DNA of 64,000 bases, from assembly GCF_003023845.1 (NCBI RefSeq), contig NZ_PYFT01000001.1:2480001-2544000 (forward strand). Direction: 5' to 3'. The notes under the pieces were generated by a model. The model was not told the DNA's origin. It worked only from the letters and a program-made list of their open reading frames with translations, and did not search any database. Source of the DNA: Adhaeribacter arboris (GTDB taxonomy: Bacteria > Bacteroidota > Bacteroidia > Cytophagales > Hymenobacteraceae). Shown in pieces: positions 47,438 through 48,212 of this stretch. A program made the translations under genes and the position numbers. The first letter of the stretch is position 1; each line of letters begins with the position of its first letter.

Positions 47438-47498
47438 AAACTACATCCGCAGCCAAGGTCTCTTATAGGGTGGAGACGGCTACATTACAACAATCTAA

Positions 47499-47571
47499 CG
47501 CGGGATGGAGCAGAAGGCAGCTCGCTGGGCTCATAACCCAGAGGTCGGTGGTTCGAGTCCACCTCCCGCTA
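47499..47571 (+). tRNA. tRNA-Met(CAT), initiator type, prophage-encoded
   Basis: A complete cloverleaf: acceptor CGCGGGA with TCCCGCT, anticodon arm CTGGG-CTCATAA-CCCAG, T arm GGTGG-TTCGAGT-CCACC. The three G-C pairs (GGG/CCC) at the base of the anticodon loop and the unpaired first acceptor position (C1 with T72) are the marks of bacterial initiator tRNA. No CCA is encoded. It lies inside the prophage early region, before the long tRNA-like RNA. Confidence 0.85.
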
Positions 47572-47653
47572 CTAAGGATTACCAAAGAGCTCCTAGCCAG
47601 GTGAGTGATTGCCGGCAGTAGGAAGAAAAGACAATCGGGAAAGACCGGTGGAT

Positions 47654-47808
47654 TACCAGGTGGCGGAATTGGATATACGCTTGAGCAATTGTCATTCAAG
47701 TGAGGTCAGGGATTTAAGCACCAGCCAGCATCCTTAAAAAGTGACTTAATACCAACAGGGTATTAATAAGGCTCCTCACAAGTGCCGGTTCGAATCCGGC
47801 CCTGGTAG
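47654..47808 (+). tRNA. tRNA-like RNA, class II, with expanded variable arm (isotype undetermined)
   Basis: 155 bases. The acceptor TACCAGG pairs with CCTGGTA at the far end. A Leu-like D arm (TGGCGGAATTGG...CGC) and a perfect T arm GCCGG-TTCGAAT-CCGGC are present. The anticodon arm CTTGA...TCAAG has an 11-base loop instead of 7, so no anticodon can be read reliably. The variable arm is closed by GTGAGG/CCTCAC but encloses about 70 bases with their own nested hairpin (TTAATACC/GGTATTAA inside CCTT/AAGG). Could be a defective tRNA, a tRNA with an insertion, or a tRNA-mimic RNA. Confidence 0.55.
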
Positions 47809-47884
47809 CATACATGGGTAATGCAAGCGCTTTATAGGTGTCCCCAGTGGTGAAAAGGAGTAGCCACTAAAAGCAAGCCGTTAA

Positions 47885-47918
47885 CCGGAACCGCGTCAGT
47901 GTTCCGGCACTTTTTTCC
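47885..47918 (+). terminator. Terminator after the prophage RNA cluster
   Basis: CCGGAAC (47885-47891) pairs with GTTCCGG (47901-47907), followed by CAC and a T6 tract at 47911. It separates the RNA cluster from the following protein genes. Confidence 0.75.
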
Positions 47919-47942
47919 TTCTCACCTTTAAACGGAAAGCCT

Positions 47943-48212
47943 ATGAGTCAGGAAGTGCATTATTTTTTTAAGCAGGATAATAAAAAGGCCGTCATGATCC
48001 GGGCGCCGGACAGATTGCTGATCATTGAGCTGAACCGCCATCCGGAAGACGAACCCGATACTTACAGGGTCTACGGCTTTAAAGATAAATACATGGCCAA
48101 CCGAATTTTAAAAACGTGGGAAGAGCACCGGATCACTCCCGCTTATTATCAAATTTTAGTCAACTGTGCGCTGGGTTTAATTACCCAAGACACTCAAATT
48201 TTAACCTCATGA
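47943..48212 (+). CDS. Hypothetical prophage protein
   Basis: 89 residues with a good ribosome-binding site (GGAAAG, 4 bases before ATG). A short beta-rich start (VHYFFKQDNKKAVMIRAPDRLLIIELNRHPEDEPDTYRVYGF) and a helical end. No family recognised. First gene after the terminator and head of a tightly packed run; its stop overlaps the next start (ATGA). Confidence 0.55.
   Translation: MSQEVHYFFKQDNKKAVMIRAPDRLLIIELNRHPEDEPDTYRVYGFKDKYMANRILKTWEEHRITPAYYQILVNCALGLITQDTQILTS

What the first reader, a model, noticed from the sequence alone, without database searches (positions are those of the whole stretch)
47654..47808. tRNA-like RNA with a 70-base insertion in the variable arm
Acceptor (7 bp, exact), D arm and T arm are all well formed and Leu-like, yet the anticodon loop is 11 bases and the variable arm encloses a nested hairpin. 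The pairing of GTGAGG with CCTCAC and the inner TTAATACC/GGTATTAA hairpin argue for a selected fold rather than random insertion. It may be a phage tRNA-mimic, a processing decoy or a regulatory RNA, and I know of no named family with this layout.
Basis: seen in the sequence. Interest (0 to 1): 0.7.

Follow-up and report, generated by a model that had tools for sequence, protein, structure and literature searches.

The report
Phage tRNA-shaped RNA that cannot decode
A dormant virus in this bacterium carries a gene for an RNA shaped like a transfer RNA but with a large extra domain in place of a normal codon-reading arm; similar RNAs turn up in many bacterial viruses and are not described in the databases we searched, so it looks like a widespread viral RNA type whose job is still unknown.

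Summary
Window 47654-47808 encodes a tRNA-Leu-like RNA (154 nt; an ordinary tRNA-Leu is about 86) with a perfect 7-bp acceptor, D arm, T arm and U48, but a 103-nt middle holding a degenerate anticodon arm and a variable-arm domain with two nested hairpins. It lies in a prophage, between an initiator-like phage tRNA-Met and a probable terminator. Default ARAGORN and Rfam do not report it; 60 dinucleotide-matched random windows contained no such element. A syntenic copy in a sister species (80% identity) shows compensatory changes in the acceptor and one nested hairpin; the main insert stem is invariant and one anticodon-stem pair is broken there.

It is not unique. Capped scans of viral contigs returned 156 distinct Leu-like elements of this layout, nearly all without a canonical anticodon arm and with hypervariable middles, plus two further tRNA-like groups. 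A strict pattern occurs 5 times in 257 Gb of bacterial genomes; the two hits checked lie in prophages.

Best reading: a selected, non-decoding, tRNA-shaped phage RNA. That the tRNA body serves maturation and stability while the variable-arm domain does the work is inference. Decoy, charging, pseudogene, intron and Y-RNA readings are rivals. No transcript evidence was available.

The parts
47654..47660 (+). 5' strand of acceptor stem (TACCAGG)
   Evidence: 7/7 pairs with 47801-47807; two compensatory changes in sister copy
47663..47680 (+). D arm, tRNA-Leu-like (GCG-GAATTGGATATA-CGC)
   Evidence: sequence; identical stem in sister copy
47681..47699 (+). degenerate anticodon-like arm (TTGAG/TTCAA, 9-nt loop CAATTGTCA)
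   Evidence: sequence; one pair broken in sister copy
47691..47696 (+). GTCATT, possible pseudoknot partner of 47740-47745 (AGTGAC)
   Evidence: complementarity read from sequence; invariant in both copies, so unproven
47700..47705 (+). 5' strand of variable-arm base stem (GTGAGG)
   Evidence: pairs with CCTCAC 47774-47779; five pairs invariant, sixth lost in sister copy
47708..47735 (+). first nested hairpin AGGGAT[TTAAGCACCAGCCAGC]ATCCTT
   Evidence: compensatory changes against the sister copy, better still with a one-base register shift
47719..47729 (+). conserved loop motif CACCAGCCAGC
   Evidence: identical in sister copy; similar motif in a separate phage family
47746..47766 (+). second nested hairpin TTAATACC-AACAG-GGTATTAA
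   Evidence: 8 pairs; one one-sided change in sister copy
47774..47779 (+). 3' strand of variable-arm base stem (CCTCAC)
47784..47800 (+). T arm GCCGG-TTCGAAT-CCGGC, preceded by U48 at 47783
   Evidence: sequence; invariant in sister copy
47801..47808 (+). 3' strand of acceptor stem and discriminator G73; no encoded CCA
   Evidence: sequence
47499..47572 (+). tRNA-Met (CAT), initiator-like, same strand, 81 nt upstream
   Evidence: ARAGORN and Rfam
47885..47916 (+). probable terminator CCGGAAC...GTTCCGG then T-rich tract
   Evidence: sequence; near-copy in a second prophage of the same genome; not reported by the consensus scan, which allows loops of 3-8 only
47943..48212 (+). next phage gene (89 aa), conserved neighbour in the sister prophage
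   Evidence: 69% identity

Best explanation
It is a phage-encoded, tRNA-shaped non-coding RNA that is not used for decoding. Shown by sequence: the acceptor stem, D/T elbow and U48 of a tRNA-Leu are intact, the anticodon arm is degenerate, and a roughly 80-nt variable-arm domain replaces the usual short one; it sits between a phage tRNA-Met and a likely terminator, and the same layout recurs in many phages with different domains. Inferred: it is transcribed with the tRNA-Met, its ends are matured like a tRNA (RNase P and tRNase Z/exonucleases), the tRNA body makes it stable, and the variable-arm domain carries the specific function, by binding a protein or RNA.
For: Intact tRNA body with an abnormal middle, not expected by chance. 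Syntenic copy in a sister species with double compensatory changes in the acceptor and one hairpin. Class: 156 distinct Leu-like viral elements; a canonical 5+7+5 anticodon arm in 4.5% against 1.6% in shuffles; base before the T stem is T in 99%; a helix ends 2 nt before the T stem in 46% against 21% shuffled; variable-arm helix z = 6. 69 of 190 elements lie within 500 nt of an ordinary tRNA, all 69 on the same strand. A strict pattern gives 5 hits in 257 Gb of bacterial genomes, two checked and both in prophages, against 32 viral loci in a capped sample.
Against: No transcript, processing or phenotype data. Only two copies of this exact element are known, and their covariation is matched by 31 of 500 shuffles. 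Middles are only slightly more stable than shuffles (mean z -0.7; window middle -1.3). The minimum-energy fold is not the cloverleaf. No antisense target of note in the phage. Elements of the class were found with tRNA-Leu patterns, so the prevalence of the Leu scaffold and its fixed bases is biased by construction.
Confidence: 0.55

Rival explanations
1. Decoy: the tRNA body competes for a host tRNA-acting enzyme, for example a defence anticodon nuclease, and is itself resistant because it has no normal anticodon loop.
For: Intact elbow and acceptor with lost anticodon; phage location beside a phage tRNA. A published suggestion for YrlA RNA has the same logic: its tRNA-like domain is not cut by the anticodon nuclease and may inhibit it (PMC7790460).
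Against: Does not explain the large, structured, lineage-specific added domain; a simple tRNA stub would do. No target enzyme known.
Confidence: 0.2
2. Substrate for a synthetase: G73 plus a long variable arm lets SerRS (or, in A73 relatives, LeuRS) charge it, so it sequesters or delivers an amino acid.
For: Discriminator A in 125 and C74 in 133 of 156 Leu-like elements; [quoted passage not shown] E. coli LeuRS does not need the anticodon (own knowledge).
Against: A second group (116 elements) with a similar Leu-like D arm has no conserved discriminator or C74, so charging is unlikely to be the general purpose.
Confidence: 0.1
3. Decayed tRNA gene with a random insertion.
For: Only two copies; anticodon stem broken in one.
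Against: Perfect acceptor, D and T arms kept with compensatory changes at 80% identity; same layout kept in many other viral elements.
Confidence: 0.08
4. Intron-containing tRNA spliced to an ordinary tRNA.
For: ARAGORN with introns allowed parses it as tRNA-Ile(aat) with a 62-nt intron; a split anticodon stem is somewhat enriched in the Leu-like group (25.6% against 15.3%).
Against: Not enriched in the second group (z = -0.8); the four elements parsed by ARAGORN with introns give unrelated isotypes and positions; the insert is far shorter than a group I intron and matches no Rfam intron.
Confidence: 0.05
5. Bacterial Y RNA (YrlA type) for Ro60.
For: Weak YrlA match over the T arm, 22.4 bits against a 69-bit cut-off.
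Against: Host and sister genome have no TROVE/Ro60 match; the matched downstream part is not conserved in the sister copy.
Confidence: 0.02

Closest known systems
Ordinary tRNA-Leu (Rfam RF00005)
   Same: Acceptor, D arm, T arm, U48, class II variable-arm position
   Different: 154 nt instead of about 86, no canonical anticodon arm, G73, not reported by the Rfam tRNA model or default ARAGORN
YrlA / bacterial Y RNA (RF02553)
   Same: Non-coding tRNA mimic made of tRNA arms with an added domain
   Different: YrlA has its T arm before its D arm and no acceptor stem, and works with Ro60, which this host lacks
tmRNA (RF00023)
   Same: tRNA-like ends plus an inserted domain
   Different: Normal D stem here, no tag reading frame seen, no Rfam match over the element
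Phage tRNA-like family with GACCACCAGC loop found here (model R2; not in Rfam)
   Same: tRNA body, G73-C-A end, GTC in the anticodon-like loop, CACCAGCNNGC in the variable domain
   Different: Window element scores 36.6 bits, in the range of unrelated tRNA-likes, against 106-155 for members; apical GGGG pairing absent

Membership tests
Functional tRNA | acceptor, D and T arms | tested here: met
Functional tRNA | 5-bp anticodon stem with 7-nt loop and U33 | tested here: not met
   9- or 11-nt loop; stem broken in sister copy
Functional tRNA | score above Rfam RF00005 cut-off | tested here: not met
tRNA-Leu identity | A73 discriminator | tested here: not met
   G73 in window and sister copy
YrlA / Y RNA | score above RF02553 cut-off | tested here: not met
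   22.4 against 69 bits
YrlA / Y RNA | Ro60 partner in the genome | tested here: not met
   no TROVE match in G000 or G007
tmRNA | Rfam tmRNA match over the element | tested here: not met
   only a 9-bit T-arm fragment match to a tmRNA clan member
GACCACCAGC phage family (R2) | full-length model score well above other tRNA-likes | tested here: not met
   36.6 and 32.1 bits
Class of phage tRNA-Leu-like RNAs with enlarged middle | 7-bp acceptor, Leu-like D arm, T arm, U48, enlarged middle without canonical anticodon arm | tested here: met
Any of the above | transcribed and end-processed | not testable with these tools
   no transcriptome available

The most novel reading that the evidence does not exclude
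Tailed phages of several bacterial phyla share an undescribed strategy: RNAs built on a class II tRNA core without a decoding arm, each carrying its own variable-arm domain, used as stable effectors during infection. The window element is one of them.
Probability: 0.4. Interest if true: 0.85.

Novelty: new variant of a known kind. Interest (0 to 1): 0.6.

Why it matters
Phage 'tRNAs' are usually counted and interpreted as decoding aids, and standard finders miss this class: only 5 of 190 were called by default ARAGORN. If real, many phages carry tRNA-shaped effectors that no annotation shows, and the regulatory or anti-defence use of tRNA mimicry becomes directly testable, including in cultured phages (Leuconostoc Ln-9, Weissella WC29P3, Brochothrix BtpYZU01) that carry the second group unannotated.

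Tried and rejected
Exact insert pattern and neighbour-protein searches in viral and genome contigs gave no relatives. The GACCACCAGC family was first taken for the parent family of the window element because of a shared motif (absent in 162 other elements; P = 0.00014 in shuffled middles); the covariance model does not support membership, so the motif stays suggestive only. A 27-nt insert match in another genome (L586) had no tRNA around it. Y RNA, tmRNA and intron readings were tested and set aside. Antisense to the phage's own genome: only 11-12-nt matches. Literature searches in an open-access library found no description of the class; subscription papers were not searchable. One script returned 0 through a regex fault and another used the wrong T-stem length; both were redone.

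Full report
Setting. The window is G000:C1:2480001-2544000 of a 7.25-Mb genome. The element lies in a prophage: downstream genes match HNH endonuclease, dNMP phosphatase, primase and virion protein families. Order on the + strand: two small genes, tRNA-Met 47499-47572, the element 47654-47808, a probable terminator 47885-47916, then an 89-aa gene at 47943. By its 1-72 mismatch and GGG/CCC anticodon stem the tRNA-Met looks like an initiator tRNA (own reading).

Observation. The scanner for acceptor + D arm + T arm finds one element of this size in the window and none in 60 random windows. Default ARAGORN and Rfam do not report it; ARAGORN with introns allowed gives a tRNA-Ile(aat) parse with a 62-nt intron. 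A second nested hairpin, AGGGAT/ATCCTT, was missed.

Relatives of this exact element. One copy, in a sister species (G007, 80% identity), has the same neighbours: tRNA-Met upstream and the 89-aa gene downstream. On the two-sequence alignment 94.9% of cells pair; the acceptor has two double changes and the missed hairpin two; the variable-arm base stem is invariant; one anticodon-stem pair is broken. The shuffle control reaches these values in 31 of 500 trials, so covariation is suggestive, not proof. With a one-base register shift the missed hairpin pairs fully in the sister copy (own reading). No further copy was found in 204 family and 390 order genomes.

The wider class. A second prophage of the same genome (L013) and a Mu-like prophage of another genome (L055) hold differently built elements with the same kind of tRNA body. 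Their middles are hypervariable, lack a canonical anticodon arm, end in U48 in 99%, and often have a helix ending 2 nt before the T stem. U8, the D-loop bases and T-loop bases were fixed by the search pattern and prove nothing; acceptor pairing was required by the scanner; U48, A73 and C74 were not. A strict pattern has 5 hits in the bacterial genome collection, of which the two Sphingobacterium hits lie in prophages and differ by a compensatory acceptor change.

Two further groups. Group G55: 116 elements with D arm TGGCGGAATAGGTAGACGC, 6-bp T stem and loop TGCAAAT, 7-bp acceptor in 103, U48 in all, variable-arm helix in 62-68% against 19-20% shuffled. It occurs in cultured lactic and Brochothrix phages without annotation, and among 20 neighbouring genes tested about half match terminase, head or HNH families (longer genes were picked, so biased). 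Group R2: 64 distinct elements with a GACCACCAGC loop; 28 of 45 consensus pairs show double compensatory changes in 18 sequences; no Rfam match over the element and no match in 50,697 phage records. The window element shares loop motifs with R2 but fails the model test.

Function. No direct evidence. The body is conserved where tRNA-maturation enzymes read it and the decoding part is lost, while the added domain differs between lineages. I therefore favour a stable tRNA scaffold carrying a lineage-specific domain, about 0.55 for the whole statement; that it is a selected non-decoding RNA is more certain (about 0.8) than how it works (about 0.4). A decoy is the main rival. Ro60-dependent function is unlikely since the host and sister genome lack Ro60.

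Limits. Counts from viral contigs come from capped scans of fetched loci and are lower bounds from biased patterns. E-values from the home-made models are rough. Literature search covered open-access papers only. No transcriptome was available.

Noticed in passing
window 47499-47572; L003 929-1002: Prophage tRNA-Met looks like an initiator tRNA: 1-72 mismatch (C.U here, A.A in the sister copy) and GGG/CCC anticodon stem.
   Followed up: partly
L014 9846-10165 (sister prophage): tRNA halves TATCGAT...ATTGATA with D and T arms, separated by about 225-270 nt that contain a 65-aa reading frame (L003 1183-1380) without a PHROG match.
   Followed up: partly
L013 9278-9399 and G000:C1:2881790-2881829: A second prophage of the same genome has its own Leu-like element, a tRNA-Thr and a terminator 90% identical to window 47879-47919.
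   Followed up: partly
L430-L545, L173, L224, L247, L287: Strongly conserved phage tRNA-like RNA family with GACCACCAGC loop and GUC in the anticodon-like loop; 28 of 45 pairs covary; not in Rfam.
   Followed up: yes
L304-L306, L310-L429: Second tRNA-like group with 6-bp T stem and TGCAAAT loop, often just upstream of packaging genes; in L319 a ROOL RNA lies directly upstream.
   Followed up: partly
L055 7992-8115 (-): Element in a Mu-like prophage whose insert holds ACGACCTAA, complementary to TTAGGTCGT in its variable arm, a possible pseudoknot.
   Followed up: no
L053 7200-8130; L579; L200: Arrays of YrlA-like tRNA-mimic RNAs between a Ro60-like/VWA gene, a PARG-like gene and RtcB (L053; gene names by eye), and similar inserts in a phage contig (L200).
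   Followed up: partly
window 47448-47484: Hairpin upstream of the tRNA-Met, partly conserved in the sister prophage.
   Followed up: no
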